This document shows positions 28,469 to 53,500 of a stretch of DNA of 64,000 bases, one piece after another; position 1 is the first letter of the stretch, and every line of letters begins with the position of its first letter. The position numbers and the translations under genes are program-made. The DNA comes from Porphyra umbilicalis (lineage: Eukaryota > Rhodophyta > Bangiophyceae > Bangiales > Bangiaceae), in assembly GCA_002049455.2 (NCBI GenBank), contig KV918834.1:211105-275104 (forward strand). Direction: 5' to 3'. Below the pieces are notes generated by a model, which saw nothing but the letters and a program-made list of their open reading frames with translations, ran no database searches and was not told the origin of the DNA.

Positions 28469-28499
<31 letters not shown>

Positions 28500-30952: not shown

Positions 30953-31123
30953 GTGAAGGGAAGAGCCGGTGCGGTGCGCAGGCCATGCATCTGCCTAAGA
31001 GAGAAAACTCAAACGACAAAGGGAATGTGCCGTGAGATCCCCCACCCACCCAAACGCGCCCGCCCCACCGCGCGGGCCACCCGCCCAGCCGGGCGCCCCC
31101 CCCACCGACGGCCATGGCGGCGC

Positions 31124-31820: not shown

Positions 31821-31851
<31 letters not shown>

Positions 31852-33785: not shown

Positions 33786-34004
33786 TGGGGGGGGGGGGGA
33801 GGGAGCGAGGGCGGACGCGGTCCGGACACCTCGAGGTGGGGAGGGGGGGAAGGCAAGCGGCGAGCGGAATGACAAGAGCGACGGGGGTCCACACGCAAAG
33901 GGGCATGGTGCATTGCAGAAACAGCGCGCCCGCGGCTGTGGCGGCGCAAGCCGTGCGGGCCGGTCGCTCCACCGGGGGCACGACCGCCGCCACGCCGGCG
34001 GCGG

Positions 34005-36996
34005 CTAGATGAACAAATCGCTGCCGGCAGCGGCCGGCGGGTCCACCCCCCCCACCCCCCTCCCCCCCCGCCCCCCTCCGCCTTGAGGAGGTGCAACCGC
34101 ACGCGGTCGACAATCTCCGCCTTGCGCCCCGTGACGGGCAGCCCGTGGGCGACGCAGTACACTTTGAGTTTGGGCACCGTCTTGCGCTCGAGGCACCCGT
34201 CCTCCCCCGCCCCCGCCCCCGCGTCAAACGGCCCCGCCTCGTCCACGGCGGCCGCCGCTGCCGTGCGCTTGGCATCCGCCGCCGCCGCGCGCGCGGTCGC
34301 CCGCTCGGCCCGCACCGCCGCCGCGCGGGAGGTGGCGGTGCCAAACCGGGCGGCGGCGGCGGCGGCGTCAAAGGCGGGGCCCCCGAGCGCCGCCACCCGA
34401 AAGGCGGCGAGCGCGCCGGCCGCCGACGCGGCAATCGCCGCGTCGTCGGGCTGCAGGGGGTCCGCGGCCAGGGGGGCGAGCGCCGCCGCGGCGGCGGCGG
34501 CGAGCTCCCCACCCCCACCGCCGCCGCCGCTGTCGCCGACGCCGCCACCGGCCGCCGCCGCAGAGGTAGGATCCCCGTCGGCACCCGCCGACGGCGCCAG
34601 CGCCGACAGTGGCGGCAGCGTGCCCGACGACGTTGCTGCCGCGGCGGGGCCGGCGGCGGCAGACGGCAGCGCCTCGGCGAGCGCAATCGCCTGCACGACC
34701 GCCCAGTGGCGGGCGAGCACCGGGTCCCGCACGTGCCACGGGCGCCACGTCGGCGGGAGGGCCATTTTGCGGACGACGCGCGCCGCCGCGGCGGTGCCGA
34801 CCGGGACGGGGGATCCGTCGAGCTCCTCTGTGGTTGGGGGGGGGGTGGGGGGGGGGTGGCGCCCCCGTCGTCGCCCGAGCCGCCGCCACCGCCGCCGCAA
34901 CTGTCGTCGCCGTCGCCGTCGCCATTGTCATCGTCCCGCTGCCGCCGGGAGCCGACGCGCGGCGCAGCATCGCCACCCCCCTCCCCCCCCCCCCCAACCT
35001 CGGACGCGTCAGCCACCGGCGTCGGCACGAGCGCCTTCCACCCATCGTACAAGTCGTCGGCGTAGGGGAGCCACGTTAGGTGAAAGCCCGGCGGCTCCAC
35101 CTGCACGGCCCCGTCGAGCACCTCCTCGGCCGGGACGAGGACGCCGAGGCGCACGCCCGCCCCCTGCCCCCGCAAGCTCCCCCCGACAAGCGCCACCTTG
35201 CCGCGGCGGAGGCACCCTTCGTGCAGCGCCGCAAATGCCACGGCGCTCCCCGACCACAGCGCCTCGTCGGCAACGACAAAGGCGCTCGCCTTGACACTCC
35301 CCGCCGGCGGCGGCAGGCGCCCCGAGCCGACAAAGCCGAGGAGGTCCACCCCGCGGCGGCGGTGCGCGCAGCGGAGTTCCGTCAGCTCCGCCGCCGTAAA
35401 CGCCGCGTCTGCCCCGTCGACGAGCGTGTAGGCGTGCCGCACCGCATCGGGGGTGAGCAGCGGCCGCGCGGTTTCCGCGCACCAGGTGGCCGCCGCGGCG
35501 GCGACGGGGAGGTTGGTGCGGCGGTCGACGAGGACTTTGGGGGGGACGGGCGTGCGCGCGACGCGGTTGTACACGGCAATGCCGAGGGTGATGGGCCGCC
35601 CGCGGCCGCCGGGCGGGGCGGTTTGCGAGGCGGCGGTGGTGGCGGCGGCGGCGGGGGTTTGGGCGCCCCCGCCGGGCGGCGGCGGCACGTCGGCCGCCGG
35701 CGGCGTGCACCCGATGCGCAACACCGTCCGCGCCGTCGCGCGTTTCGGCGTGCCGACCCGCCGCACGGTCGCGCGGAGGGTGTCCACGTCGGAAATCGGG
35801 GTCACGTCGAGCGCGCGGGAGCCGCCGCCCTCGCCGGCCGGCACGTCGTCCTCCTCTGTGTGAAAGACAATGTGGGCGAAAAACTTGTGCACGTCAAAGG
35901 GGGGCGCCCGACCCTCCCACGGCGATGGGGAGAAACAGGGTTGGCCGCCCACGAGTTGGCTGACGCCCGCCGTCGGCGGCGTGCCCCCAAAGAGCGCGCC
36001 CGACGAAAAGGCCGAAGCGCCGGCGCCGGCGGCCGCAGTGGCCGCCGCCGACGCTGCCGGCGGCGGCACCCCCACCAGCGGCTGCAGACGCACAAACGCG
36101 CCCACGTCGGCCAAATCCATCGCGTGCTTCTCCGCGTTGGCGAGCGTCGCCGCGTCCCCCCCCGCCGGGTCGTCCGAGTTGGTCAACACAAACACCCGCT
36201 TGTGCGCCAAGAAGCGGTCCCGCTCCCGCTCGGCCGTCGCGCCGCCGCCGCCGCCCCCACCAAACGCCGGGCCCTTTTTGGCGTGCAGCAGCGCCATGCG
36301 GCACACCCACAGGGCGTCGCCAAATTGGCACCCGCCGCCGCCGTCGCCGTCACCGTCGCCGCCGCCGACGCCACGACCACGACCACCACCGCCGGCGGCC
36401 GCCCCCCCCCAACGGCGTCGAGGTGGCCCGGCAGAATCACCCCCCCCACATCCGTCTCGTCCACCTCCCCCGGCGCCGTCGGCGGGGCGGGCCCGCCCGC
36501 GAGCGCGTCGGCCAACCCCTGCACCGCCCGGATGGCGGCGACGGACGGGGGCGCGAGCTCCCGCACGACCCACACCCCGGGCACGGCGCGGGAGTTGCGC
36601 GACCGCACGGTGCCGTAGAGGACCACGCCGACGACGTCGCGGGGATGCGTCCGCACCTTGTCGCGGAGCGCGTCCGCGGCGACTTGTAGCGCCGCCGACG
36701 CGAGCGTCACGCAACCCCGCCCGGCCGACGCGCCAGAAGGTAGGGGGGGGGGACGGCGGGGGCGGCGGAGGCGGCGGCGGAGGCGGGGGGGGGGGGGGGG
36801 CGCCCGGCTCCGCCTTGCTGGCGACCGTAAAGGTGGTGAGCATCGGCATGGACGCGTCGATGAGAAAGACGAGGGCGGTGTGGACGTCCTTGCCGCGGCG
36901 GGACGCCCAGCGGGTGCGCGCCGCTTCGGCGGCGGCGGCGGCGGCGGCGGCGGTGGTGGGGGAGGACGCAGGGGCGGCCGCCGGTGCAGACGCCAT
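34005..36996 (-). CDS. KU70: Ku70 (XRCC6-type) DNA end-binding protein; frame shifted at G/C tracts
   Basis: Ku70 pairs with Ku80 to form the ring that binds broken DNA ends for non-homologous end joining and telomere maintenance. The start is ATG 36996 (CCACCATGGCG). The N-terminal von Willebrand A-like domain begins with DVHTALVFLIDASMPM. It continues in a second frame (VAADALRDKVRTHPRDVVGV, then VLYGTVRSRNS and WVVRELAPPS) and returns to the first with FGDALWVCRMALLHAKK. The Ku core beta-barrel follows (ITLGIAVYNRV, TPDAVRHAYTLVDGADAAF, LLGFVGS, and VEPPGFHLTWLPYADDL near 35090-35055). The C-terminal arm (WRPWHVRDPVLARHW) and a SAP domain (KLKVYCVAHGLPVTGRKAEI, about 34175-34115) are in another frame, and the end is probably GSDLFI then TAG at 34007-34005. 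The SAP domain separates Ku70 from Ku80. Shifts fall at 36785-36800, 36402-36410, 34836-34856 and about 34049-34078, all G/C homopolymers. Confidence 0.85.
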
Positions 36997-38147
36997 GGTG
37001 GCAATGGAGGAATGAGCGAGCCTGCGGAGTAAGGGTAAAGCGATGCGACGGTGCAGTCCGCTGGGGACGACCGGGGGCGCCACGGTGACGAGCGCCGTGG
37101 GAGCTCTGCCGGCACGAAGAGGACCAAGCACGGCGTCTTGTTCAAGACCACTCGTGCTGCTCGTAGTCCTCTTGGGATGCACACCATATTGGGAGTGCGA
37201 CAATTCCACACTGGTTCCTAAAGCAAGCGGATTAAATGCGTCGGATAGTCATCAAGCGGCATCACAAAGCGCGACGTTTTCGTGCCAATCATCAGCACGT
37301 CAGCACTGGCGTCTACAGGAGCACCCGCCCCTCTCGCCCGTCCCGTCGCGCCCCCGCGGGCCCCGCTCGTTCCGTGCTCGCGTCGGTGCCGCCGGCACCG
37401 CGCCACCCCCAGCACGGTCGGTGCCCGGCCGCAACACCGCCGCGCGCGGCGCAGGGTGCCCCATCCACCGCCACCGGAGCGCGTTGGCGGCCGCCGGCAG
37501 GGACCGCACGTCGGCCATCGCACGTGTCACGCCGGTGGCCACTGGGAAGTCGGTCAATGGGGGGCTGCGCGGTCGGGAAAAGACTCACCCATCGGCCGCC
37601 ATGGGCCCCGTGTAGGCGACCACGGCGACGGAGTAGACGGTGACTTGCCTACGCGCGTACCTCATTGGCGGGTCCGGTGGCTGCCTTTGTCGACGTTGGT
37701 GCATGCACGTGGCCGCTCGTCGCTGCCGCCGCTGCCTCAGCGCCTTACATACCAGACGCCCCGGTATGGCCCGACGTGTTGATTCCATGACAACGAGATC
37801 ACCACCGCTATTGCCATCGCATTGGCCGTCAAATCACCTGGCTGGGTCACCATCGCCGCCTCGGGGAGGAGACGGGGCGCTTGCTATGAGGACAGTCGAC
37901 CACGCCAAAGGAATGAAGAAAAGACTGTTTAACTCACAGGGGACTATCGCGACCCTATGACCACCATCCCTACGTCCAGGGAAACACACAGCCAGCCAAT
38001 GCATGACATGAAAGAAACCGCACCACATAGCCAAACAAGGAGAGCACAAAATGCACCCTTGAGAACAGCAGAAAGAAACACCACACATCACAGTCATGGC
38101 TCCCATTGGACCACAAGGCGACCACCATCGGCCGCCATGGTCCCGCC
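36997..38147. other. Intergenic region upstream of Ku70
   Basis: The first 500 bp are GC-rich and probably hold the Ku70 promoter. GC falls after 37750. Short frames on both strands show no domain. Confidence 0.4.
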
Positions 38148-39611
38148 TCACGTCTCAATCCCGGTCATGCCGCGCCCCCCAGCCACCGCCGAACCCATCC
38201 GCGACGACAGCACCTGTACTGCCTCCCCCGCCAGCGACAGCCCCGACATGCCCGACCCATCCGACAGGCCGCCGCCGCGCTCCGCGCTGCACACACCCGC
38301 GTCGACGCGGCTGCGCGCGTCACCGCCGCCACCCGCCGTGTCACCATGGACGCAGTGGTCCAACTCGAGCGACCCGCACGACTGGTCCGCCGCCGGGTCC
38401 CCCACGCTGCCACGGTCGCCACCACAAGACACTGGGGAGGACACTGCCTTGACCATCGTCGATACAGGCGCCCCCGTGCCGACCGCGGCCGTGGCGGCGC
38501 CAGCGTCGGCGGCGCCGCTCGCGCGCTGCAGCGATCCAATGACGGCATGCAGCCGCGCGTTGCGCTCACGCAGCTCCACATTGTAGGCAATGGCCTCGGC
38601 CAGCCGCTTGGCGACAGCGTCGCCCGGCGACAGCGACGGCGAGGGGCCGCCGCGCGCCACCACCCCCGGCTGCGCATGCGTCGACGCCAGCGGCATGGAG
38701 GCGAGGGCGGCGGCCGCCGCAGCCGCGTCTGCCGTCTCGGACGAGAGCGTCGGGGCCACCGCGGCCGCCGCTGCCGTTGCATGCCGCGTCGCGGTCGTCG
38801 CCGCAGCGGGCGCCTTGGCGTCCGCCGCCGTCTCTGTCGCCGCAACAGTAACCCCCCGCGCCGCCGCCTCCCGCGCCTTGTGGCGGGAGCGAGCGGCCGA
38901 CGCACGGTTCCGCAGCCGCCGCCGGTGGAGCATCACCTCCCGCTCCGACGCCGACATCTTGCGGCTGCGAGCGGCGGTTGTGCCAGCCAAGTTGGCGCGC
39001 GCCAGCTCGTCGAGCGCTAGATCCGCCGGGGGGGGCGGGGACGACTTGCGGCGGCGGGTGCGGGTGATCTTGCGCTTGGGGGGGGGCGTCGGCCGCGCCG
39101 CCGGAGACACCGCCCCGGCGGCGGGACCGGCCCGAGCCGCTGCAGCCGCAGTAGAGGGGGTGGGGGGCGACGCCGCCGCCGCCCAGTGCACGCCCACATG
39201 GCCACCAACGACGCCCGGCACGGTCACCGCGGTGGGGGCGACCGCGGTCGGCGGGGCCAACGCGGCGGGGGCGCCCGACAGGGGGTTGTTGGCCGCCGAC
39301 AGGCCCGCCGCAACCGGCAGCGGAGCGGCCAAGTGCATCGGTACTGGGGCGTACGCGTAGGGGGCGTAGCCGCCGCCCATCCCATACATCCCCGCCGCCG
39401 CCGCCGCCGCAATCGCGGCCGACGACGACGGAGCGGCCGACGGGTAGGCAGGCAGGCGCAGCGGCGCCGCGTACAGCTGCAGCACCAGCGGGGCGGGCGC
39501 GAGCACGGGGGCTGCAGGGGCGGGGGGAGGGGGCGGGGGCGGCCGCGCCGCCAGCGCCCGGGGGGGCGACGGGCGGCGCACCAATGGCCGCGGCGGCGGA
39601 GACGGCGTCAT
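38148..39611 (-). CDS. bZIP-like transcription factor with basic region and zipper set far apart
   Basis: The frame of 487 residues starts at ATG 39611. Residues 1-170 are Pro/Ala-rich with a Met/Tyr/Gly patch (MYGMGGGYAPYAYAP), and a basic NLS-like KRKITRTRRRKS lies near residue 185. The basic region at about 217-245 (REVMLHRRRLRNRASAARSR) fits the bZIP signature N-x7-R. In a normal bZIP a leucine follows nine residues after that Arg; here it is Gly and an Ala-rich stretch follows. A zipper-like segment with Leu every seventh residue and Asn in between (VELRERNARLHAVIGSL) appears only at about 344-360, some 90 residues later. The C-terminus is Ser/Gly-rich. Bzip factors bind DNA as dimers. 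The gap could be an in-frame retained intron, since algal and plant bZIP genes often carry an intron in this hinge. Confidence 0.7.
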   Translation of the reverse strand: MTPSPPPRPLVRRPSPPRALAARPPPPPPPAPAAPVLAPAPLVLQLYAAPLRLPAYPSAAPSSSAAIAAAAAAGMYGMGGGYAPYAYAPVPMHLAAPLPVAAGLSAANNPLSGAPAALAPPTAVAPTAVTVPGVVGGHVGVHWAAAASPPTPSTAAAAARAGPAAGAVSPAARPTPPPKRKITRTRRRKSSPPPPADLALDELARANLAGTTAARSRKMSASEREVMLHRRRLRNRASAARSRHKAREAAARGVTVAATETAADAKAPAAATTATRHATAAAAAVAPTLSSETADAAAAAAALASMPLASTHAQPGVVARGGPSPSLSPGDAVAKRLAEAIAYNVELRERNARLHAVIGSLQRASGAADAGAATAAVGTGAPVSTMVKAVSSPVSCGGDRGSVGDPAADQSCGSLELDHCVHGDTAGGGGDARSRVDAGVCSAERGGGLSDGSGMSGLSLAGEAVQVLSSRMGSAVAGGRGMTGIET

Positions 39612-41958
39612 GATCGAGGGAGGGTAAAAAAGCAGAGCGGAGGGCGCAACAGCCGATCCCCGGCCGGCTGGCGCGGGGGTGCTGGCAAACCCCGGTCGAC
39701 ACGATCAATCAACGCATGCGGGGTCGACCACAACGGCCCGTCGGGGTCGAGGTCGGACGCGGCCGCGGCGGCGGCAGCGACGGCCGGGCGGTGGCCGGTG
39801 GGGGGAATCGTGGTGGCGGCACGACCGCCGCGGGCGGCGGCCACACGCCGCCGGGCGCGTGCGGGCGGCTCCCACCCGCCGACGGGCGTGCCAGCGCGCA
39901 TGGCATCCGCACCCGCAGGGCGGGCGTGGCGCGGCCGCCCGCACGCGGAGCGCCGCCCCCGTCGCCAGAGGGGGTGCGTTGCGGGGTGCACGGCGGGGCA
40001 TGTGGAACCTGGGTCGCGCCGCCGCCCGCCGCCAGTCAGATGTTAGCTCGGGGGGGCCCGGCGCTGCGCACACAGGCTGCGACGGGGGGGGGGGGGCCCG
40101 CCGCCGGCCGCGTGGCGCTGGTGGTGGTCGCCGCTGGCCACCACCCCGTCAGTGCCTCACAGACAACCCTGGAGACAGTTGGGCGCGCGCCCCCCCCCTG
40201 GTTGCCAGCATCAAAAACGGGGGTCTCGGGGGGCACGCCCAAAATCTCAACGGCGCAACGGGGCGGCCACCCAAAACCCTCTGACGCACAAACCCGCACC
40301 GCTGTTGTATCTCAAGCGTGCGGTCGGCCAATGGGCGGCCGTGGAAGCGCGGGTGGAGGCTGCTTGCCAATCGGGTGGGCGCCGGTGGCGCTGCCGTTGG
40401 CGACGGGGAGCCGCGCCCCTGGCACTTGGATGGTCGGCAGCGGGGTACCGCGAGCTCAACGGAGATCAGCGCGGCGACCGAGCGGCGGTTCCTGGCCACA
40501 AGCGAGGAGGCACGTCTAGAAGCTGGGACCTGTCGCCCTGATCCAGATGCATTGCTGTAGAACTTGCCTGACGCCCCGGCAACTGGTATTTTTTCACGAG
40601 TAGTTGACGCGTGATCGCTGTCAGATGGATGACTCCTCGAACCTTGCGCGCACAAGCGCGCGCTTGTCTGTCCCCCCCCGCGGCGCAGCGGGCGGCTGCC
40701 CGACGCGGGCAGCTGCCCAACACCGTAGGCATGGGTTCCACCCCTGCCGCTGCCTGTGCCGAGCTCGGCTCGCTGCTTTTCGACATACTGGCGCTGGGGT
40801 GGAGGCGGCACGGAGCCGGGGGGCCGCCGTGGCCGTGGTGGCGGCCGACGCGGTGGCCTCGGCAGCGGCCGCCCCCGCGCGGTCCATGGTGGTAGTCGTT
40901 TCCTGCCACGGCAGGCTCACCTGCGCCGACACAAACGCAGACGACAGGGCGTCGGACACAAGCACACACTCTCCGCCGACGGTGCCGTGGCGGGCGGCGG
41001 CCGCCGCGGAGAGCAACACACCGACCTGCCCGTGGACGTCGCACGCAGCGGTCGTCCCCCGGTGGCTGTCGGCCCCCGCACGCGCGCCGGCCGCTGCCGC
41101 GACACCCGTGGCCGTCAGTCCGCTCGCGACCGTCGGTTCCAGGCGCTGCGCGCCGCCGCACGCAGCGGCCGCGCACGCCCCCCGGCCGACGCGGGGTGCG
41201 CGGCCGCCGCGGCCGCCCGACACCCCCGCCGCCGCGCGGGTGCGCGGCGACGGCCGCGCCGCCGGTGCGGCCCTGCGCGCATGATCCCGCGCACCCGCAG
41301 CGGAGGCGCGGCGGCGCCCCGGCGGGCGCGGCCTCCCCCGCCCCGCCACCCCCCCCCCCCCCCGCGCCGACCGGCGTCACGCCCCCCCGCCGCACCGCCG
41401 GCGTACCGCCGGCGGCGCGCCACCCCCGGCGCGGCGTCACACCCCACACGCCGCGCCTCGGCGGCGCCGCCGCCGCGCCGCCCGCCGCCGACGGGGCGCC
41501 CCGCAGCCGCCGCCGCCGGCGGCGGGTGCGCGGCGCCCCCCCCCGCCGCATCCCCCCGCGCGCGGCGCCGGCTGCCGGCCGGCCACTGGCGGCGGGGCGG
41601 GGGCGCCCCCCCCCGCCGACACGGGCGGCCGTACCGCCGCGCCTGGTCCCAGCTGGTCCCAGCCGGCGGTCGCCGCCGCCCTGCCAGGCGCGCGCGCGCG
41701 CGCCCGCCGCGCGGGCGGCGGCCGCACGGCGGGCGGCGGGGCCGCCCCGCCGCCCCGGTCGCCGGCGGCCGCGCGGGGGCGCGACGGAGACACGTGGCGA
41801 TTGGGCGCCGCCGCCGCCATCGCGGGCGCGGCGCGCGGCGGCCGGCGCGCCTCCCCCCGCCGCCGGCGGTCGCGCCGCCCGCCCCCCGCCACGGCGGGCA
41901 CCCCCCCCCCCCCCCGCCCCCCCGCCGCGGTTGGCTGCCACTGCGCCCGCCCGCCGCC
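39612..41958. other. GC-extreme intergenic region between bZIP and QueA
   Basis: Frames of 220-560 codons are open in several registers on both strands, as expected at this GC content. None shows a domain I recognise. The least unlikely is a minus frame at 40621-41349 with a non-repetitive middle part (GGECVLVSDALSSAFVSAQV); I do not call it a gene. Poly-C and poly-G runs occur at 40083-40096 and 41349-41362. Confidence 0.35.
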
Positions 41959-42237
41959 ATGCACCCCGCCGTCGCGCCGTCGGCCCGCCGCGCCGCGTCG
42001 GCGGCGGCGGCGGCTGCGCGCGGCGGCGGCGGGCGTCGGGCGGCCGCCGCCGCGGCCGCCCCGCCGGCGGCGCGGCGGCCGCGGCGCCCGCCGCCGCCCG
42101 CCGCCGCCGCCGCCGCCGCCGCCACCGCCGCCGCCGCACCGGGCGTCTGCCCATCGCTGCGGAGCGCAGGGGTCACGGCGGTGGCCGGCCGCCGGGCGCT
42201 CGGCTCGATCCCCCCCGCCGCGGCCGCGTCGTCGGGC

Positions 42238-42274
<37 letters not shown>

Positions 42275-43862
42275 CGGCGGCGGGGGCGGCGGTGGCAGCG
42301 TCCCCTCCCCCACAAACGGCCCCGCCTCTGGCGGCGGGCACCCCCCCCCCGCACTCGCCACCCCCGACGGGCCACCCCGTGGTCCGCTCTTTGACGACGC
42401 CGCCGCCCCCCCCCCCCGCCGGCGGCGGCGGGTGCGGTGGACACCCGCCTCGCGCGCGCGCGGGCGGTCGGCACGGGCGCCTATGACTACCACCTCCCCC
42501 CCGAGCGCATTGCGAGCCGCCCCGCGGCGGGCGGGCGGGACACCTCCAAGCTCCTCGTTGGGGTGCTCGGCGACGCTGGCGCCGCCGCCGCCGCGGCGGG
42601 CGCCCCCGCGCCCGCCGACAGCGTTGACGTGCGGCACGCGGCGTTTGGGGATATCGTCGCCCTGCTGCCGCCGCGGACGACGCTCGTCGTCAATGACTCG
42701 GCGGTGATTGCCGCGCGCGTGCGGGTCGTCAAGCGGTCGACGGGGGGGGGGGGGAGCTCCTCCTCTTGTCCCCCGGGGGGGGGGGGACCCGGCGGCGGCG
42801 CTCGCCACCCCGCTCCCGGCGGGGGAGTTTCCAGTCCCGGGGGGGGGGAGGGGGGGGGGGGGCGCCGCCACTGGCGGCAACGGCGGCAGCGGCGGCAACG
42901 ACCCGCCGCCGTGCGAGTGGGCGTGCATGCTCCGCGGCCGCCACGTGCGGGTTGGGGACGAGCTCGCCACCCCGTGCGGGCGCCTCCTCGCGCGCGTCGT
43001 GTCGCGCGGCGGCGGCACCACCGACAGCGTCGTGTCGTTGCGGTGGGTGTCCCCCCGGCTGCCCGGGGCGGCGGGGAGCGCCCCCCCCCCGCCCCCCCGC
43101 CGTCGCTGGGCGCCGCCCTCGACGCTGTCGGCACGACGCCGCTCCCGCCCTACATCCGCCGCGCGGCGACGCCCGCCGACGCGGCCGACTACCAAACGGT
43201 TTTTGCGGCGGCGGCCGGCTCCGTCGCCGTCCCGACCGCCGCCCTCCACTGGACGCCGCGGCTGCTCGGGCGCCTCGCGGCGGAGCGGCCCGACGTGGCC
43301 GTCACGCCCCTCACCCTACACGTGGGGGCGGGCACGTTTGCGCCTCTGACCGCCGCCGACGCGGCGGGCCACGCGATGCACGGGGAGCGGTTTGGGGTGC
43401 CCGTCCCGACGGTGGCGGCCGTGGCGGCGGCCGCCGCCCGGGGGACCCAACCGTCGCCGTCGGCACGACGGCGGTGCGGACGCTCGAGTCGCTCTACTGG
43501 CTCGGCGTGCGGCTGCTGGGGGGGGGGGCGCCGCCGCCGCCGCCGCCGCCCGACGGCGGGTCGCCCGAGTGGTTTTTGGACCAGTGGGAGGCGTACGCGC
43601 TCGCCGACGCGGCCGACGCGCGGCGGGCGGCGAGCGGTGGCGGCGGCGGTGCCGCCGCCGGCGGGGCGGGCGGGGCGGCCCCCCCCCCCCCCGCCCCCCC
43701 CCCCCCCGGGCGGCGTGTCGGTCGCCGCCGCCTACACGGCGCTGGCCGACTGGGCGGCCGCTCACCGCGTGGCGGCCATCACCGGCACGACGCGCCTCCT
43801 CATTGTGCCCGGCTACCCGTTTGCGGTTGTGGGGGGGGTGGCGACCAACTTGCACCAGCCGC

Positions 43863-43894
<32 letters not shown>

Positions 43895-44098
43895 TTGGGC
43901 AGCCGCCGCGCGCTCGGGCGCGTGTATGGGGCGGCGCTGGGGGGGGGGTACCGGTTTTTGAGTTATGGCGACGGCTGCTTTTTTGTGCCGGGGCGGCTGC
44001 TCGGGGGGGGGGGGGGGGGGGGGGCGGGGGAGGGGTGGAAGGGGGGGGGTGACGCAGCGGCTGGGCTGAGCGCGCTGTGTAGCGCGCGGCTGAGGTGA
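41959..44098 (+). CDS. queA: QueA: S-adenosylmethionine:tRNA ribosyltransferase-isomerase, frame shifted at G/C tracts
   Basis: QueA transfers and isomerises the ribosyl part of AdoMet onto preQ1 in tRNA, making epoxyqueuosine. Family blocks appear in order across three frames: AYDYHLPPERIASRPAAGGR and LLPPRTTLVVNDSAVIAARV (42475-42725), CEWACMLRGRHVRVGDELA, then LPPYIRRAATPADAADYQTV, VPTAALHWTPRLL and LTLHVGAGTFAPL (43139-43350). These are followed by TVAVGTTAVRTLESLYWLGV, EWFLDQWEAYAL, LIVPGYPFAVVGGVATNLHQ, STLLLLVAAFLG and YRFLSYGDG (to about 43975). The ESLYWLGV, QWE-Y and LHQPRSTLLLLVAAF features are those of Bacteroidota-type QueA. Host-style poly-G/C insertions (42742-42754, 42775-42786, 43679-43707) separate the conserved blocks. 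An Ala-rich leader from ATG 41959 may be an organelle transit peptide, joined across a 12-C run at 42406-42417; that start is inferred. QueA is unusual in a nuclear genome. Confidence 0.8.
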
Positions 44099-45611
44099 GC
44101 TCGTACCGTAGCGGGCGGCGAGGCGACAGACGGTCTACCCCTGCCATGGGGCCATGGCGACACGGGGGCCCGGTGCCATGCATCTGAGGGTGTCGCCGCC
44201 CGCGCCACCGCCACCATTTTTGGGCCGCTCGACGCGCGCGCTGATGGCCACGGCGCCCACAGGTTACCGTTGGTGCCGTTGGGTTTCTCCCTTGCCGGTC
44301 CGGTCGTGGGCGGCAAGACGCCCGCGGGGTCCCCGACGCTGACCGCCGTCAAGCGGGCGCCGACGGTGAGGCATCCGCAGCAAGCAGCGTCGCCTGCGCC
44401 CGACTCGGCCTCGGCACGACCCCCCGGCGGGCCGCACCCATCGATCCACCGCCGGCGCGGTCGCGTCGACCCGCGTGCCCGACCGCCGACGCGTGCACCC
44501 GCCCCCCGCCGACGGCGGGGCCGTCGCCGAGCCGTCCCCGCCGCCCGCCGCCAAAAGCCGCGCCCCGCTTGGCGCGCTGCCACGAGGCGCCCGCGGCGCG
44601 CCGCGGCCGGCCCGCACACCTCGCGCGGCCGCCGGCGCCGCGGGGACGGCGCGGCCGCTGGGGCGGCGGCGGCGCCGCGCGCCGCGGCGGGGCGGCGCCG
44701 CGCGCCGCTCGGGCGGGGGCCCCGCGGCCGAGAACCCGTCGCCGCCCCGCCGGCGCGGGCGCCGACGGGGCCGCCCGACGGCTGTAGATTGGCTGGCGTC
44801 CACGCCCGGCCGCGGCCGTCGGTGGACTGGCCGCACCGCCGCGCCGCCGCCGACGGTCCGCCAGTGGCGCCGCACGCACGCGCCACTGGCGCGTGCGTGC
44901 GGCTGTGTGTCTGGCTGACGCCGGCGCCCCCCCCCTCGGCGCCCCGCCCGTGGCGCAACCCCACCGCGGGCGCGCGCCGGCGCACCCCCGGGCCGGCGCG
45001 TCGGTCGACCCGCCAGTGGCACGCGTGCCGGCGGCGCGCCGCTGCCCCGCCGTCGGGCCGGCGCTGGCCGCCCGATGGGTGGCCGGCGCGCGGCGCCCGC
45101 GCGGCGCTGGAGCGGCCGTGGCGGCGCGGCCGACCCGCCACGGCCGACGGGGCGTCGGCGGCCGGGCGTCGACGTGCAGGCGTTGGGTGCAGGGGGGTGG
45201 GGGTTCACCCGCCCCCGGCGTCGGCCGCCCCGCGGGGCAGCCGTCGCGAGGCAGCCGCCTCGCGACGGGTCGGCGCCGGTGCACGTCGCCGCCCGCGGTG
45301 CACCATCCGCTCCCCTCCCGTGCACCAGCTGCGCTACGCGACGCTGCTGCCACAGGAGGCCACCGTTGCACGGTCGTGGGCGCGGCGATGTCTGTGGCCT
45401 GCGTGCCAACGGGCTACAAAAGCGAGGACGGTGGCGGTGGCCCGGCATTGACACCCACGCCGACACCACGGCGTCCACCCCACTGCCTCGCCATCGACTT
45501 TCGCGGGTGGTTACCCTTTCACTTCCTGCTCTTTGGCCGCTTGCACCCCCCCTTTGGTGCCCGTGCTTGTCCTGCCGCCTCTGGTGGCATACCCCTTTAC
45601 TACTAGTCGCC
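44099..45611. other. GC-extreme gene-free stretch
   Basis: Frames of up to 520 codons on the minus strand (44264-45832) and 390 on the plus strand are mutually overlapping Arg/Ala/Pro/Gly sequences without domains, so I regard them as artefacts of GC content. Confidence 0.4.
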
Positions 45612-45770
45612 ATGGTCCCCCGTGTCCAGACGATGCTGTGTCTGTGTGTGCTGCTCGTCGCTGCCATCGCCTGTGGGACAGACGTCGTGCGCATGCCCAC
45701 GGCTGTGGCGGCCGCCGTTGCCACCCCCCCGTCGCTCCGCGGAGCGCCCGTGTCCGCCCCCACCAAGTAG
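45612..45770 (+). CDS. Possible small secreted peptide, 52 residues
   Basis: A short frame begins at ATG 45612 in an excellent context (GTCGCCATGG) and ends at TAG 45770. It opens with a short basic start and a hydrophobic stretch (VQTMLCLCVLLVAAIACG), then a polar tail, as expected for a signal peptide followed by a small secreted peptide. No homology is recognised and chance occurrence is possible. Confidence 0.25.
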   Translation: MVPRVQTMLCLCVLLVAAIACGTDVVRMPTAVAAAVATPPSLRGAPVSAPTK

Positions 45771-46086
45771 TGGTGCGTGCCGACCTTCTTTGCCCTGCAG
45801 CGCTCGTACAAGCCTCCACGCATGCCGCTCATTCATACGCCCTCGGTGATTCTCTTTCGGGCTGCGGAGGAGCTCCGCAAATGGCTGATTGACATCCCAT
45901 GGGTTCTGTGAGCAGTCACTTATTGGTGTTTGAAAAGCTCACTCTGGGAGGTAATCAAAGTGTTGACGTGGGTGCTTGCAGCCAATGGGTGCGATAAATT
46001 TCGAGAAGGAGCCAACGAGAAGCGAGAATTGGCCTCGAAACCCAGATGAGACAAAAGACTCCCCGCACAGTAGATCTTACACCAGG
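45771..46086. other. Left flank of the transposon pair
   Basis: AT-richer than the sequence to its left; no gene is recognised. It ends at the TA target dinucleotide 46087-46088. Confidence 0.4.
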
Positions 46087-46088
46087 TA

Positions 46089-46115
46089 CAGTCAGTGAGC
46101 AATTTTATCCGTACG
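46089..46115 (+). repeat. Left terminal inverted repeat of copy 1
   Basis: Differs from the right-end repeat by one base (C versus T at position 5 of the terminus). Confidence 0.9.
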
Positions 46116-46277
46116 ATTTTGCAACTTTTTTTCTATCCCGGATCAAGTCCCGCAATCGGCCTCCATGCACCAGCACGCGCCACAGTTCTCGACTTTGCCT
46201 CCACATGCATCGGCAGCGTGCGTCTTCGTGCGCCGACAGCTGACCCCCCCCGGACCAGAGCGCGGCTACCAACCACC

Positions 46278-47336
46278 ATGGGGGGACGTACTCGTCGTCC
46301 CCTGTCCGTCGGCGAACAAGAAACAATTTCTACTCTCCTCCGGCAGGGAAAGTCACTTGCTGCTATTGGTACGATTCTGGGGCGGCCGAAAAGCACCGTC
46401 GCCTACGCGGCGGAGGTGGCGCGGGCGACGGACAACGGTGCCAAGGTGGACAAACGGGGCCGCCCCAAGTCCCTGACGGAGCGAGAGCTGCGCTCCCTGC
46501 GCCGCGCCGTGGACGAGAACGGCTTCTCCACAATCCGGGCGTTGACGGAGAAGGTCAACCAGACGCGCACCCAGGCGGCTGGAGGCTCCCAGAAGGGTCC
46601 CGTCTCCACCTGGACGGTACGGCGGGCCGTCAAGGCCATGGGTTTTGAGTCCCGCGTGGCTTCCAAAAAACCCTACCTGTCGGACCGGAACAAGGCCAAG
46701 CGGCTGGTGTGGTGCTCAGAGCGCAAGGACTGGACGATGGAGTGGGCATCGGTCTTCTTTAGCGACGAGAGCTCGTATGTCGTCCGGGACGCGAGCGCTC
46801 ATCGCGTTTGGCGTCGACCTGGCGAGCGGTACTCCCCATCTCGGCTGCGCCCGACCTTTAAGAGCGGCCGCCAGAGCGTGATGGTGTGGGGGGCTTTCTC
46901 GGCGCTGGGACGGTCACCTCTGGTGCGCTGCGAGGGCAAGATGACGGCGGTCTCGTACGGCGCGCTGTTGGAGGAGCACGTTGTGCCCAGGATTGTTGAG
47001 GACTACGGCTCGACGGACGCGGCCTGGTTCCAGGAGGACCTGGCGCCAATCCACACGGCCAAGTTGTGCAAGGCCATCAAGCAGAAGCACGGTATTCGCG
47101 TCCTTCCCTGGATGGCGCAGAGCCCGGAACTCAACCCCATAGAGAACGCGTGGGGCGAGCTGGAGCGCCGGCTGCGGCTGCGACCGAGGATGCCCAAGAC
47201 CAAGGACGAGCTGTTTGCTGCTCTGTGTCACGAGTGGGAAGCCGTCCCCACCTCTTTCTTCAAGGCTTTGGCGGAGTCCATGCCTCGACGGGTGAAGAAG
47301 GTGATTGAGGTAGGGGGTGCGAGCACCAAGTGTTGA
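46278..47336 (+). CDS. Tc1-type DD34E transposase, copy 1
   Basis: The protein cuts out and inserts the element at TA sites. The start is ATG 46278 in a perfect context (ACCACCATGG); the frame is open further upstream to 46095, but that extension crosses the terminal region. Its 352 residues match Tc1 transposase length. Two helix-turn-helix units form the paired DNA-binding part: residues about 8-50 (SVGEQETISTLLRQGKSLAA then KSTVAYAAEVAR) and about 75-130 (ending STWTVRRAVKAMGF). The catalytic triad is complete: Asp in VFFSDESSYV (about 162), Asp in WFQEDLAPIHTA (about 253) and Glu in ELNPIENAW (about 288), with 34 residues between the last two. No stop or frameshift is present, so it could be active. 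Confidence 0.95.
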   Translation: MGGRTRRPLSVGEQETISTLLRQGKSLAAIGTILGRPKSTVAYAAEVARATDNGAKVDKRGRPKSLTERELRSLRRAVDENGFSTIRALTEKVNQTRTQAAGGSQKGPVSTWTVRRAVKAMGFESRVASKKPYLSDRNKAKRLVWCSERKDWTMEWASVFFSDESSYVVRDASAHRVWRRPGERYSPSRLRPTFKSGRQSVMVWGAFSALGRSPLVRCEGKMTAVSYGALLEEHVVPRIVEDYGSTDAAWFQEDLAPIHTAKLCKAIKQKHGIRVLPWMAQSPELNPIENAWGELERRLRLRPRMPKTKDELFAALCHEWEAVPTSFFKALAESMPRRVKKVIEVGGASTKC

Positions 47337-47613: not shown

Positions 47614-48672
47614 TCAACACTTGGTGCTCGCACCCCCTACCTCAATCACCTTCTTCACCCGTCGAGGCATGGACTCCGCCAAAGCCTTGAAGAAAGAGGT
47701 GGGGACGGCTTCCCACTCGTGACACAGAGCAGCAAACAGCTCGTCCTTGGTCTTGGGCATCCTCGGTCGCAGCCGCAGCCGGCGCTCCAGCTCGCCCCAC
47801 GCGTTCTCTATGGGGTTGAGTTCCGGGCTCTGCGCCATCCAGGGAAGGACGCGAATACCGTGCTTCTGCTTGATGGCCTTGCACAACTTGGCCGTGTGGA
47901 TTGGCGCCAGGTCCTCCTGGAACCAGGCCGCGTCCGTCGAGCCGTAGTCCTCAACAATCCTGGGCACAACGTGCTCCTCCAACAGCGCGCCGTACGAGAC
48001 CGCCGTCATCTTGCCCTCGCAGCGCACCAGAGGTGACCGTCCCAGCGCCGAGAAAGCCCCCCACACCATCACGCTCTGGCGGCCGCTCTTAAAGGTCGGG
48101 CGCAGCCGAGATGGGGAGTACCGCTCGCCAGGTCGACGCCAAACGCGATGAGCGCTCGCGTCCCGGACGACATACGAGCTCTCGTCGCTAAAGAAGACCG
48201 ATGCCCACTCCATCGTCCAGTCCTTGCGCTCTGAGCACCACACCAGCCGCTTGGCCTTGTTCCGGTCCGACAGGTAGGGTTTTTTGGAAGCCACGCGGGA
48301 CTCAAAACCCATGGCCTTGACGGCCCGCCGTACCGTCCAGGTGGAGACGGGACCCTTCTGGGAGCCTCCAGCCGCCTGGGTGCGCGTCTGGTTGACCTTC
48401 TCCGTCAACGCCCGGATTGTGGAGAAGCCGTTCTCGTCCACGGCGCGGCGCAGGGAGCGCAGCTCTCGCTCCGTCAGGGACTTGGGGCGGCCCCGTTTGT
48501 CCACCTTGGCACCGTTGTCCGTCGCCCGCGCCACCTCCGCCGCGTAGGCGACGGTGCTCTTCGGCCGCCCCAGAATCGTACCAATAGCAGCAAGTGACTT
48601 TCCCTGCCGGAGGAGAGTAGAAATTGTTTCTTGTTCGCCGACGGACAGGGGACGACGAGTACGTCCCCCCAT
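47614..48672 (-). CDS. Tc1-type DD34E transposase, copy 2
   Basis: It encodes the same 352-residue protein as copy 1, with the start at ATG 48672 in ACCACCATGG context and an intact DDE triad. The two genes converge, with stop codons 277 bp apart, so read-through from either would give transcripts complementary to the other. Confidence 0.95.
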   Translation of the reverse strand: MGGRTRRPLSVGEQETISTLLRQGKSLAAIGTILGRPKSTVAYAAEVARATDNGAKVDKRGRPKSLTERELRSLRRAVDENGFSTIRALTEKVNQTRTQAAGGSQKGPVSTWTVRRAVKAMGFESRVASKKPYLSDRNKAKRLVWCSERKDWTMEWASVFFSDESSYVVRDASAHRVWRRPGERYSPSRLRPTFKSGRQSVMVWGAFSALGRSPLVRCEGKMTAVSYGALLEEHVVPRIVEDYGSTDAAWFQEDLAPIHTAKLCKAIKQKHGIRVLPWMAQSPELNPIENAWGELERRLRLRPRMPKTKDELFAALCHEWEAVPTSFFKALAESMPRRVKKVIEVGGASTKC

Positions 48673-48834
48673 GGTGGTTGGTAGCCGCGCTCTGGTCCGG
48701 GGGGGGTCAGCTGTCGGCGCACGAAGACGCACGCTGCCGATGCATGTGGAGGCAAAGTCGAGAACTGTGGCGCGTGCTGGTGCATGGAGGCCGATTGCGG
48801 GACTTGATCCGGGATAGAAAAAAAGTTGCAAAAT

Positions 48835-48861
48835 CGTACGGATAAAATTGCTCACTGACTG
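48835..48861 (-). repeat. Outer terminal inverted repeat of copy 2
   Basis: Matches the outer terminus of copy 1 (C variant at position 5), followed by TA 48862-48863. Confidence 0.9.
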
Positions 48862-48863
48862 TA

Positions 48864-50512
48864 CGCACGAGGACCCCTCTCACAGGCACCGTGAGGGGCG
48901 GCTCGTTGTCGACGGAGCGCACGATGTCCTACAGAAAAGCTCAACACGAGTTCGAATGCAAGGATATTTCTCGCCCATCACGTGGCCGGGATTGCGGAAT
49001 CGAGGAGGACGAGCGGTCTGATGGCCCATTGTCTTAGCCAAGTGGGCCAGATATTAATATCGGGCTACTTGTTTCCATTAAGATTCCCAGTTTCGACATC
49101 GTGCAGGACATCGTGCGAGATGCACAGTGTCCACTTCGTGCAGCGCTAATCGGAAGCCCCTAACTGAACCCGCGGAGGCGGGTCGGCTGATTTCGTCCCA
49201 GTGAGAGCTCCCAATTTCGGGCCTCTGTGCCTGAAAAAAGCACATTGTGCAGGACATCGTGCCAGCCGATCGAGCGTGCAATCCCCTATGCGCAGCCGAC
49301 TGCTCAGCGCTTTCGCGAAGGCAGAAGAGTCCGCGTCCGAGGACTTCGATGTGCTTGGGGCACCTGTAGTGCATGGGTATCAATTGATGTGCTTTACTAT
49401 ATTTGTGCAAGAGTTCCGTCATGTACAAGTGTGAGTAGTTGACAGGCTGTTGATCCGTGGACCTGTCTCCAAATCCAACTGGGCGGCTCGACGGCGCTCG
49501 TGTTCCCTGGTTCTTCATGGGCTGTGCCCTCGAGCCCATGGCCCTGCGACTTCCTTGCGACGGACTCACCTTCAGTGATGGGCACATCTTCGAGTCCCGC
49601 GTATGGTCCTGAGCGGCATTGAGACGCCCGGTTCTTTGTACGTTCTTGCCTCTCCAGGTTGGTGGTGTCGCTCGGCTGCACCTTGCCCACCCTCCCTCGC
49701 CTTTGTGGCGGTGGTGCACGATGATTAAAACGCACTCTTCAGTGCTATTCCTCGTTGATGACCTGACGGACGTATATCGTGTACGGCCGTTGGGACTGAT
49801 ATAGCAACTTTTAATTGCATTTTGTATGAGTGCCAATGAGGACCTTGCTTTCAGGTCTCTTCCGCTTGCGCTTTGTTTATCGGGGCGAGTGCCTCGCTCG
49901 TCCATGTGCTGACTTGTTCTCGCTTATGTGAGTCATCTTGGCTGTTTCTGGCTTCCAGTGCTTCCGCGGTTGTCATGTCGCTCGATTGTCTCACCGTTGT
50001 GCATCACGCGCGCAGGTGGACCTGTCTGCGGTCCTTGCCTTGTCCCCCCGATAGAAACCCTATGGTTTGTAAAGAGCAGGGCCTGGCCTTGATTGTCATC
50101 TTCTCGTTGCATCCGGTTGCAGTGTGACGGCCGAGGCAGTCGCAAGCCCAACTGGAAGGCGCTGCCGACTAAGGGCCGCAGCATTTCTCATGGCGACTGC
50201 ATGGGCACGATGTTTCGTCAACATCGCCACACTCCACTGCCGCGTACGCCCGCCATCTCGCTTTCTTGCGCGCGAACGCTTGCTAGATAAGAACATGTGC
50301 ATTGGAGTCCTTCCTCAAGCGGAAGAACAGCGCACAGTTGAAAGCAATAGGCTTCGGTACTGAGCGGCTTCACATGGAGATGCGAAGCACAAAAACACAA
50401 GAGTAATCACCGTCTGTACAGAAAAGGGGAGCAAGCATGTACGCCAAAAGGGAGATGAGAGACGATATCAAGCAAGAAACAAACATACAACACAGGCAAT
50501 GCGAGACCGGGC
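48864..50512. other. Gene-free stretch between transposon pair and INO80
   Basis: A minus frame at 49078-49905 (275 codons) has no domain pattern. A short motif, GTGCAGGACATCGTG, occurs at about 49100 and 49247. The last 150 bp lie 3' of INO80. Confidence 0.4.
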
Positions 50513-53500
50513 CTATGCAGCAACCGGTACACTGGCACTGCCCGGAGTGGTTGCCACCGTTGTCACTGACACACCCGCCAGCTGCTGCGCCTTGTCGTCA
50601 ATGTCGTCTTCGCCCATGAGCAAGGCCGCCAAGTCACGCAGATTGGTCGTGTCCGCGTCGGCCTGGTCCGCTTCCGCCGCAATTTGCCCGCCCTTGATGA
50701 CGAGGTCGTTGATGCGCTCCTTCTGCAGCGCGCGACTGCGAATGCGGTCTTCAATGGTGCCCCGCGCCAGCAGGCGGTAGACGGTGACAGGGCGCTCCTG
50801 GCCCAGCCGGTGAGCGCGGTCCATCGCCTGCGAGTCGACCGTCGGGTTCCAGTCCGAGTCGAAAAAGATGACTGTGTCAGCAGCCGTGAGGTTGATGCCC
50901 ACCCCACCCGCACGCGTCGACAGAAGGAAGACAAAGAGGTCGTCGTCTGTTTGCCACTCTGCCACCATGTCGCGCCGATCTGCGAGCGCGGACTGGCCGT
51001 CCAGCCGCACATACTTGAAGCCGGTCGTCTGCACGTAGTTCTCCAGGATGTCCATGACCTTGGTGAACTGTGAGTAGACGAGCACCTTGTGGCCTTCCCG
51101 TTTGAGTCGGCGGAGAAGTGCGTCAAGCACCTGCATCTTGCCCGAGTCGGCCACCAGGCGGCCGCGGTCAGGCATGGAGATGGAGGAAGTGCCGACGGCG
51201 CCTCCATAGTTGCCCGACAGACCCCGCCACAGGGCGTAGTTCTCGGCCACGGACACGCCGCTGTCGACGGGAGGCGCGGGGTAGGCCGACGCCTCAGCCG
51301 CGCGGAGCGCGGCCGCGTGCGACGCGTCTCCGGGAACGAACGCATGAGCTGGCGGGGCTGTCGCGGCAGGTACATGTATCCGTGTGACTCGCAGCAGGCG
51401 TGTGTGCACCTCGACCATCTGGGCCGGAGACTCATGGCCGGGGAGTAGGATCGGCGCGAGACCCCCGCCCCCCGCTCCGCGCGTGCCCCGCATCGGTAGC
51501 AGCAACCGCCGGTGGGGCACGTCCAGTGGGTTCTCCCCACTCGACACGCCCTCGTCATCCGATGACCCGTACACCGTGCGCAGGCGATCCAGGCCTTCAA
51601 CCACACCCGCAGAGATCCGGTGCCACCCATACACGGGCGCAAGCACGCCTGCAATCGCGAATATCTCGGTGGGTGAGAGGCCCCCGGCCAGCCGCAGAGC
51701 AGACAAAGAGCCGCCGGGCACGGGCGTCGCGGGCGACTCCGTCTTGGCCGGTGGGAACCACTGCTTGGTCAACCGCGCCGGCGTGAGGGGCCCGCAAGTG
51801 ACCACGCATGCCTTCTGGCGCTCGGCCTCAGCGAGGGCGAGGCACTGCTGTACCAAAGACGGATAGGAGAGCGACAGCGCCGACTCCCGCACAAGCGTCA
51901 CCATCTGCGGCGGAGGCGGCCCGTCCGACTTGTTCGTCAGCACAGCCGGCGGCAGCGGCGAGATAGAGGGCGGGGGTGACCGCTGGAACTGCAGCGGCGC
52001 CGTCGGTGTACGTCGTTGGAACGTCTCTGGATGGTTGCACACCTTGCGCAGCTGCATGATGATGTTCATGAGTTGCCCCTTCTCCGACGCGTCTGCCGTC
52101 CCGCCGCCACCGCCCGAGTTAACGCCAAGCGTACGGCGGAGCTCCTCAACAGAGATGTTGGCCTTGATTCCCGCGTACAGCTTGCGCTGGCGGGGTGTCA
52201 GGTCGCAGTGCACTACCAGCTCCGTCTTGGGCGGCATCTCGTTCTCCACATCACGTTTGACGCGGCGCAGCATGAATGGGTCCAGAAGTGTCCGCAGCCG
52301 CGCGAGTGTAGTAGAGTCCAGCATTGACGAGGCATTCTTGGCGTGCCCCTCAATGTCTTTGGCAAACCAGTCCGCAAACTCCGTGTGGGAGTCAAAGACG
52401 GTGGGCATGATGAAGTGCAGCAGCGACCACAGCTCCGACATCTTGTTCTGCAGCGGTGTCCCCGTCAGAAGCAGTCGGTTGCGGCACGGGAAGTTGAGCA
52501 ACGCCTTCCAACGCGCGGACGCCGAGTTCTTGATCGCCTGCGCCTCGTCGAGAACCACGTGCTGCCACTTGACGCGCGGGAAATGTGTTTGGTCGGTCAT
52601 GAGCGTCTCATACGAAGTGACGCACACGTGAAACTCCGAGTCTCGCCGGTACATACGCTTCTGCGACCAGTGCTTCCGAAGCTCTTGCCGGTCGGCCTTG
52701 GAGCCCCAGTAGGGGAGCACACGCAGCGACGGGCAAAACTTGCCAACCTCCTGCTGCCAGTTGTGCAGCGTGGCCTTAGGCGTGACCACAAGGAACGGGC
52801 CCCAGTTGTTCTCCGCCTCGGCCAAGTACGCCAGGAAGGAAATCGTCTGCACCGTCTTGCCAAGCCCCATCTCGTCGGCCAAAATCCCGCTGATGCCTTG
52901 GTCGTACAGGGAGACGAGCCACGACAGGCCGCGAAGCTGATAACCCTTCATCTTGCCCAAGAGGATAGAGGGCTGTTTCACCGCGGCCACTTGCTTGTTG
53001 TCCGACCCCGCCAAAGACATGGCAGCTGCCGCCGCTTCCGCCGCGGCCGCTTCGACCGCAGCCGCAGACGCAGGTGTGTGACCCTCGGTTGCCGCTGGCG
53101 TCACCCCGTCCATCGCGTTGGCCGCCGTTGGTGCAGCCAGCCCGCCCTCGTCATCTGCATGACGCGCCTCGTCCGCCGCCCGGTCAGCTGCGGCCGTGTC
53201 GGAGATGGACCGTTGCCGCACCGTCTCGTTGTCAAACTGTGCTAGCTTGGCGCGGTGGGCCACCAGCAGCTCAGCAGCAGCGGCTTCAGACTTGCGTCGT
53301 AGCTCCGCATCGTCCTCCGTGCCAGTGATCGAGTCCATGGTCGCGTCTACACCTGGAGCAGCGACCGCAGTTCCACTGGACGCGGAAGCAGCCCCAGCCT
53401 TATCGGCGGCGGCGGCAGCAGATGTCGCCTGCGCCTTGGCTTGAAGAAAGGACGAGAAGGCTTCGCTCTGGCCAAGCAGGAAGCGGAGCTTATTCTTCTG

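What the first reader, a model, noticed from the sequence alone, without database searches (positions are those of the whole stretch)
41959..44098. A Bacteroidota-like QueA gene in a eukaryotic gene island
QueA is the AdoMet-dependent step of de novo queuosine synthesis and is normally bacterial; most eukaryotes salvage queuine instead. The translation carries the whole family order and, in its C-terminal half, features I associate with the Bacteroidota version (ESLYWLGV, QWE.Y, N-LHQP-STLLLLVAAF, FLSYGDG). Bacteroidota are common algal epiphytes, so transfer is plausible. The gene sits among eukaryotic genes and contains the same poly-G/poly-C loops, so it is not contaminating DNA. An Ala-rich leader could send it to the plastid or mitochondrion.
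Basis: partly seen in the sequence, partly recalled or inferred. Interest (0 to 1): 0.78.

Follow-up and report, generated by a model that had tools for sequence, protein, structure and literature searches.

The report
Bacteroidota-type queuosine gene in red alga
A red alga carries, among its own genes, a gene for a late step of making the tRNA letter queuosine, of a special long kind known here from Bacteroidota bacteria, and its genome holds other queuosine-making genes too, so this eukaryote may do more than salvage the compound from bacteria.

Summary
The QueA-like gene is real: one frame alone matches Pfam Queuosine_synth at 215 bits, and eukaryotic genes (Ku, PTPLA, INO80-like, Rad4) lie around it. 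The assembly carries a red-algal plastid contig. The gene is not canonical QueA. It has an insert (ESLYWLGV...QWE.Y) shared, among the 83 rows compared, only with a second, long QueA paralog of Bacteroidota, found in 46 of 247 sampled genomes of that phylum. Trees with and without the insert group them at 100/99. Canonical Bacteroidota or proteobacterial QueA as nearest kin is rejected; nested versus sister is unresolved. The frame breaks at least five times, at G or C runs, so either the assembly errs or the gene is damaged; a second copy is decayed. The proposed targeting leader is out of frame. QueA and QueG in red algae are already in print. New here: the long-paralog identity, and a nuclear-looking QueC in the same genome, although a 2026 paper holds authentic QueC absent from eukaryotes. 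QueF, YhhQ and a bacterial-type TGT were not found; QueE is only a weak hit. A partial queuosine pathway is shown; de novo synthesis is not.

The parts
41959..42408 (+). Proposed Ala-rich leader, frame 1; not in frame with the enzyme as assembled; function untested
   Evidence: in the stretches compared, the decayed copy on C108 aligns only from 42416 on
42480..42741 (+). N-terminal part of the QueA-like protein (YDYHLPPERIAS...VVNDSAVIAARVRVVKR), frame of 42395-44098
42748..42775 (+). Short stretch in a second frame (GELLLLSPG) between two poly-G runs; assigned by motif only
42787..43083 (+). Middle part in a third frame (DPAAALATPLPAGEF...CEWACMLRGRHVRVGDELATP...)
43098..43444 (+). Core part (GTTPLPPYIRR...YQTVFAAAAGSVAVPTAALHW...LTLHVGAGTF...), best Pfam stretch
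43441..43690 (+). GTTAVRTLESLYWLGV...DQWEAYAL part with the first half of the long-paralog insert, another frame
43492..43786 (+). Region of the insert shared with the Bacteroidota long paralog (69 residues in the joined algal protein, low-complexity loops left out; bacterial long types 51-67; 27 of 28 other rows 9-15)
43708..43993 (+). C-terminal part (TGTTRLLIVPGYPF...NLHQPRSTLLLLVAAF...YRFLSYGDGCFF), frame of 42395-44098
42742..43707 (+). Interval that holds the five frame changes: G13 42742-42754, G12 42775-42786, C10/C7 43081-43098, G5 43440-43444, C14/C14 43679-43707

Best explanation
This is a nuclear gene of a red alga for a member of the long QueA paralog family of Bacteroidota. It was acquired from that lineage or from a close unsampled relative, long enough ago to reach a long branch and host-like codon habits. 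The protein most likely transfers and isomerises the ribose of AdoMet onto a 7-aminomethyl-deazaguanine at tRNA position 34, giving epoxyqueuosine, which the alga's own QueG then reduces to queuosine. Shown: family, insert, clade, eukaryotic context, and QueG and QueC genes in the same assembly. Inferred: the activity, that the long paralog does the same chemistry as canonical QueA, the organelle, and that the frame changes are mostly assembly errors.
For: PF02547 215 bits. No other QueA match in the genome apart from a decayed copy. Insert shared with the Bacteroidota long paralog and with no other row compared. Tree 100/99 with the insert columns and 100/99 without them. Grouping with canonical Bacteroidota QueA p 0.0019, with proteobacterial QueA p 0.0165, groups chosen after seeing the tree. 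Best Bacteroidota long hit 265 bits, 45% identity. 44 of 47 conserved positions kept. QueG above its curated cut-off, 264.8 vs 200 bits. Host genes around. Phe is TTT in 11 of 11 codons; QueG piece 4 of 4, PTPLA 5 of 8, Rad4 6 of 10, INO80-like 15 of 35; six bacterial genes: Methylobacterium 3 of 15, Comamonas 6 of 18, Pseudomonas 0 of 8, Deinococcus 2 of 7, Rhizobium 1 of 7, E. coli 13 of 19.
Against: Frame broken at least five times. The joined protein scores 272.2 bits against a QueA equivalog cut-off of 324, and 203.8 against 267.45. No bacterial-type TGT found. In 10 of 12 Bacteroidota genomes picked for having the long paralog, canonical QueA is present too, so its own function may differ. 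The alga row is a long branch of odd composition. That the long paralog is confined to Bacteroidota is not established: genome searches covered Bacteroidota only, other phyla came from plasmid and phage records.
Confidence: 0.66

Rival explanations
1. The window copy is a decaying pseudogene, like the copy on C108, and makes no enzyme.
For: At least five frame changes. A second copy at the end of C108 has 127 mismatches; in the segments counted they fall 39/50/32 on codon positions 1/2/3, no third-position excess. The G13 run and its G16 counterpart differ by three, so both copies share that frame offset, which random miscalling does not predict.
Against: 44 of 47 conserved positions kept and no stop inside the segments used. 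At the G5 break the C108 copy has G6. QueC and the TGT-like gene of the same assembly also change frame, and by my reading the QueG N-terminus does, which suggests an assembly-wide problem in GC-rich genes.
Confidence: 0.2
2. The long paralog does something other than epoxyqueuosine formation, in Bacteroidota and in the alga.
For: Coexists with canonical QueA in 10 of 12 Bacteroidota genomes picked for having it. Its neighbours in three annotated records are not queuosine genes. NCBI's product name there lacks queA.
Against: Conserved QueA positions are retained. Three bacterial long types pass the QueA equivalog cut-off, 338.9-349.1 vs 324 bits. The alga has QueG but no other QueA match except the decayed copy.
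Confidence: 0.2
3. It is one of the eukaryotic QueA genes already reported for red algae and Chloropicon, inherited from an early archaeplastid or earlier ancestor rather than acquired by this lineage.
For: PMC12301720 passages: closest relatives of Chloropicon QueA and QueG are red-algal, Galdieria has QueA and QueG, ancient origin proposed. Compatible with the sister position not rejected.
Against: Not tested: no other eukaryotic QueA sequence was available here. That paper's main text does not mention Bacteroidota. It describes a bacterial-like TGT beside QueA and QueG, which was not found here.
Confidence: 0.5
4. Bacterial contamination or misassembly.
Against: Eukaryotic genes on both sides in a 275 kb contig; host-like codons and homopolymer runs; best Bacteroidota matches only 45-46% identical.
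Confidence: 0.03

Closest known systems
Bacteroidota long QueA paralog (annotated S-adenosylmethionine:tRNA ribosyltransferase-isomerase, e.g. WP_004367575.1, WP_055278651.1, WP_010182051.1)
   Same: Insert ESLY..G...QW..Y, TNFHQP.STLLLLV, FRFLSYGD; clade 100/99; 36-46% identity in the 30 best hits
   Different: Algal row on a long branch with low-complexity loops; nuclear; frame changes in the assembly
Canonical bacterial QueA (E. coli; solved structures 1WDI, 1VKY, 1YY3)
   Same: Conserved family positions, Pfam PF02547
   Different: No insert; alga below the curated QueA equivalog cut-offs
QueA/QueG/BL-TGT queuosine route of Chloropicon and Galdieria (PMC12301720, passages)
   Same: Nuclear QueA and QueG in an alga
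   Different: No bacterial-like TGT or YhhQ found here; QueC found here, a word with 0 occurrences in that paper (listing); targeting not testable
QueC family, PF06508 (PMC13329287, section 5 read)
   Same: The alga's C100 gene, joined over one frame change, passes TIGR00364 (181 vs 150.3 bits)
   Different: That paper concludes authentic QueC is absent in Eukarya; this one has a poly-Gly loop and host-like codons

Membership tests
PF02547 Queuosine_synth superfamily | Score over Pfam gathering cut-off (25 bits) | tested here: met
   215 bits; 105.1, 67.2 and 38.7 bits by piece
QueA equivalog (TIGR00113, NF001140) | Curated cut-off 267.45 / 324 bits | tested here: not met
   203.8 / 272.2 bits for the joined protein with loops left out; 169.7 / 226.8 for the single frame
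Bacteroidota long QueA paralog | Insert between ESLY and TQ.II.PGY | tested here: met
   69 residues; 54 bacterial long types 51-67; 27 of 28 other rows 9-15, Collinsella 39 without the motif
Bacteroidota long QueA paralog | Groups with it in a tree without the insert columns | tested here: met
   100/99; nested versus sister unresolved, p 0.288
QueA function | Epoxyqueuosine formation from preQ1-tRNA and AdoMet | not testable with these tools
   no assay
Q route of Chloropicon/Galdieria (PMC12301720) | QueG present | tested here: met
   C18, two places, 43.6 and 43.4 bits against 25.1; TIGR00276 264.8 vs 200 bits
Q route of Chloropicon/Galdieria (PMC12301720) | Bacterial-like TGT present | tested here: not met
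   only a TGT-like gene on C200: over the PF01702 cut-off (70.9 bits) but 44.1-45.2 bits against 306.75 for the bacterial equivalog; a gene could be missing from the assembly
Q route of Chloropicon (PMC12301720) | YhhQ transporter | tested here: not met
   no match; control rang in 9 of 14
Q route of Chloropicon/Galdieria (PMC12301720) | Mitochondrial targeting | not testable with these tools
   leader out of frame
De novo preQ0/preQ1 pathway | QueC | tested here: met
   C100:183130-183884, PF06508 145.5 and 58.8 bits against 22; joined, TIGR00364 181 vs 150.3 bits
De novo preQ0/preQ1 pathway | QueE | tested here: inconclusive
   C226:14749-14841, E 2.2e-4, profile positions 12-42 only, below cut-off; letters not obtained
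De novo preQ0/preQ1 pathway | QueF | tested here: not met
   no match; control rang in 8 of 14
De novo preQ0/preQ1 pathway | QueD | not tested

The most novel reading that the evidence does not exclude
This red alga makes queuosine (or at least preQ0-derived 7-deazaguanines) itself, with nuclear QueC, a Bacteroidota-type long QueA and QueG, against the rule that eukaryotes are queuosine auxotrophs. It also uses the long paralog as its only QueA, which would show what that unexplained Bacteroidota gene does.
Probability: 0.22. Interest if true: 0.88.

Novelty: new variant of a known kind. Interest (0 to 1): 0.6.

Why it matters
Eukaryotes are held to salvage queuine only. A nuclear QueA of an identifiable bacterial paralog family, beside QueG and a divergent QueC, makes that rule directly testable in an alga, if it can be grown free of bacteria. 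It also gives a handle on the unexplained second QueA of Bacteroidota, since the alga appears to have the long form alone. [quoted passage not shown]

Tried and rejected
Contamination: judged unlikely on neighbours and codon habits. Canonical Bacteroidota QueA as nearest kin: rejected. Introns as the cause of the frame changes: not favoured by my reading of the poly-G junctions, not tested with transcripts. A viral source: one viral-contig scan with the best long paralog found nothing, but its patterns were narrow, so little follows; 20 phage records matched, four over at least 80% of the query, all under 60% identity, not read further. Q_salvage/QNG1: no match, but the control was silent too, so no conclusion. 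The C280 hit (E 0.0056) lies in a long protein that does not look like a TGT to me (its likeness to a ubiquitin-chain factor is recalled). Type of the C200 TGT-like gene: left open; among structures, bacterial TGT matches at 1e-7 and the accessory subunit at 3.7e-6. Structure prediction was not run, because the gene is not one reading frame. The first QueC codon count used a wrong frame for one piece and showed two stops; one search replaced it.

Of those 80, 8 entered the tree. The tree has 83 rows: the alga, 54 long types (12, 30, 4 plasmid records, 8) and 28 others. Six genes were reached by two calls and stand in it twice, so 77 rows are different.

Full report
What is there. The window is G000:C74:211105-275104 of an 83.8 Mb assembly in 665 contigs. 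Ten of 11 phycobilisome matches lie on contig C665 of 185,000 bases. Two of these genes match allophycocyanin alpha and phycocyanin alpha chains (that the best phycocyanin entries are red-algal is recalled), so I take it for a red alga. The species was not identified. Of 20 open frames of the window scanned against Pfam, 7 matched a family, in keeping with a eukaryote: DUF3727 31127-32494 (-), PTPLA 33129-33782 (+), Ku_N 36186-37217 (-), two Tc1-type transposases 46074-47333 (+) and 47617-48879 (-), SNF2/DBINO (INO80-like) 50516-56989 (-), Rad4 60743-62998 (-). The QueA-like gene lies between the Ku-like gene and the transposases.

The gene. Frame 42395-44098 (+) alone reaches PF02547 at 215 bits. 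The complete family order needs three frames, with changes at G13, G12, C10/C7, G5 (43440-43444) and C14/C14 runs. A second copy sits at the end of contig C108: 1090 identical and 127 mismatched positions with 37 and 27 gap letters, substitutions 39/50/32 on codon positions 1/2/3 of the segments counted, so it is decaying. At the G5 break the C108 copy has G6, as the family reading wants. At the G13 run it has G16, a difference of three, so both copies share that offset, which counts against random miscalling there. QueC and the TGT-like gene also change frame, and by my reading so does the QueG N-terminus. I therefore think most frame changes are homopolymer errors of the assembly, but a damaged gene is not excluded. 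The proposed leader from the ATG at 41959 is out of frame, and the C108 alignment does not reach it.

Which QueA it is. In tblastn against plasmid records, the joined protein hit 48 records. Four of the five top-listed are Bacteroidota (L018-L021); where annotated (three of the four) they are named S-adenosylmethionine:tRNA ribosyltransferase-isomerase, not queA. The alignment shows in all four an insert after the ESL motif that the five canonical QueA compared (E. coli, Magnetococcus, Sinorhizobium, Latilactobacillus, Bacteroides finegoldii) lack. In 83 aligned rows the region measures 69 residues in the alga, 51-67 in 54 bacterial long types and 9-15 in 27 of the 28 others; the exception, Collinsella with 39, lacks the motif. 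Of 247 Bacteroidota genomes drawn, 246 match the query. By my count of the listed rows, 46 match at 131 bits or more, as long types; the next listed match is at 112 bits. Of 12 Bacteroidota genomes picked because they hold the long form, 10 hold canonical QueA too and two do not (several are MAGs, so absence is weak).

Trees. With all columns the alga lies in the long clade at 100/99, beside L140 at 99/88. Without the insert columns it is again 100/99, beside L140 at 91/87. The alga row is long (1.55 and 1.68) and odd in composition. Holding it with canonical Bacteroidota QueA costs 48.6 log units (p 0.0019), with proteobacterial QueA 45.3 (p 0.0165); these groups were chosen after seeing the tree. 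Holding it outside all 54 bacterial long types costs only 2.6 (p 0.288). So kinship with the long paralog is firm, while nesting inside Bacteroidota, and hence the donor and date, is not. No cyanobacterial or other eukaryotic QueA could be included, and phyla other than Bacteroidota are represented by plasmid records only.

Is it host DNA. Phe codons are TTT in 11 of 11 in QueA, 4 of 4 in the QueG piece, 5 of 8 in PTPLA, 6 of 10 in Rad4, 1 of 1 in the TGT-like piece and 15 of 35 in the INO80-like gene. In six bacterial genes they are 3 of 15, 6 of 18, 0 of 8, 2 of 7, 1 of 7 and, in the less GC-rich E. coli queA, 13 of 19. Ile is less clear: ATT 3 of 6 in QueA, 12 of 45 in INO80-like. The numbers are small but fit a resident gene.

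The rest of the pathway. QueG: C18, two places about 38 kb apart; one copy scores 264.8 bits against a cut-off of 200. QueC: C100:183130-183884, PF06508 145.5 and 58.8 bits against 22; joined, 181 bits against 150.3; a poly-Gly loop from a GGC run and TTT in 4 of 5 Phe codons; top-listed plasmid-record identity 55.8%. QueF: none, control 8 of 14. YhhQ: none, control 9 of 14. TGT: only a C200 gene, over the PF01702 cut-off but far below the bacterial equivalog's, of uncertain type. QueE: a 31-position match on C226, E 2.2e-4, below cut-off; the control rang in 12 of 14 genomes, none over cut-off. QueD was not tested. The assembly may be incomplete, and contig C100 was read over 781 bases only, so its nuclear nature rests on that stretch.

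Literature. PMC12301720 (passages) reports bacterial-type QueA, QueG and TGT in Chloropicon, with closest QueA and QueG relatives in red algae and a proposed ancient origin, so QueA in a red alga is not new. [quoted passage not shown] PMC5656927 (passages) records a 7-deazapurine nucleoside from a marine red alga, an alternative use for QueC. In the listings of ten searches of the open library I saw no title or abstract start that reports the Bacteroidota long paralog as the source of eukaryotic QueA; supplements and subscription papers were not seen.

How it most likely works. Inferred from family: AdoMet ribose is transferred to the aminomethyl base at tRNA position 34 and isomerised to epoxyqueuosine, then QueG reduces it. 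Where the base comes from (own preQ0 via QueC, salvage, or both), which TGT inserts it, and the compartment are open.

Noticed in passing
G000:C100:183130-183884 (L177): A divergent QueC gene, near-complete over one frame change, with a poly-Gly loop and host-like codons in a red-algal assembly; contig neighbours not read.
   Followed up: partly
G000:C18:438513 and 476654 (L108, L109): Two very similar QueG copies about 38 kb apart on one contig; recent duplication or assembly duplicate.
   Followed up: partly
G000:C108:221831-223687 (L004): Decayed QueA-like copy running into the contig end; its substitutions lean to G and C (T>G 21, T>C 20 of 127).
   Followed up: partly
G000:C226:14749-14841: Weak QueE-like radical-SAM match (profile positions 12-42); could not be read.
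   Followed up: no
G000:C200:52441-53276 (L107): Only TGT-like gene found; split over two frames; catalytic or accessory type uncertain.
   Followed up: partly
window 46074-47333 (+) and 47617-48879 (-): Two Tc1/mariner-type transposase genes with near-equal Pfam scores, in opposite orientation, downstream of the QueA gene.
   Followed up: no
window 26001-46000: GC rises from 0.54-0.66 to 0.67-0.82 and falls to 0.60 at 46001, where the transposases begin.
   Followed up: no
L018-L021, L027-L106, L120-L161: The Bacteroidota long QueA paralog itself: often beside canonical QueA in one genome, not next to queuosine genes in three annotated records; function unexplained.
   Followed up: partly
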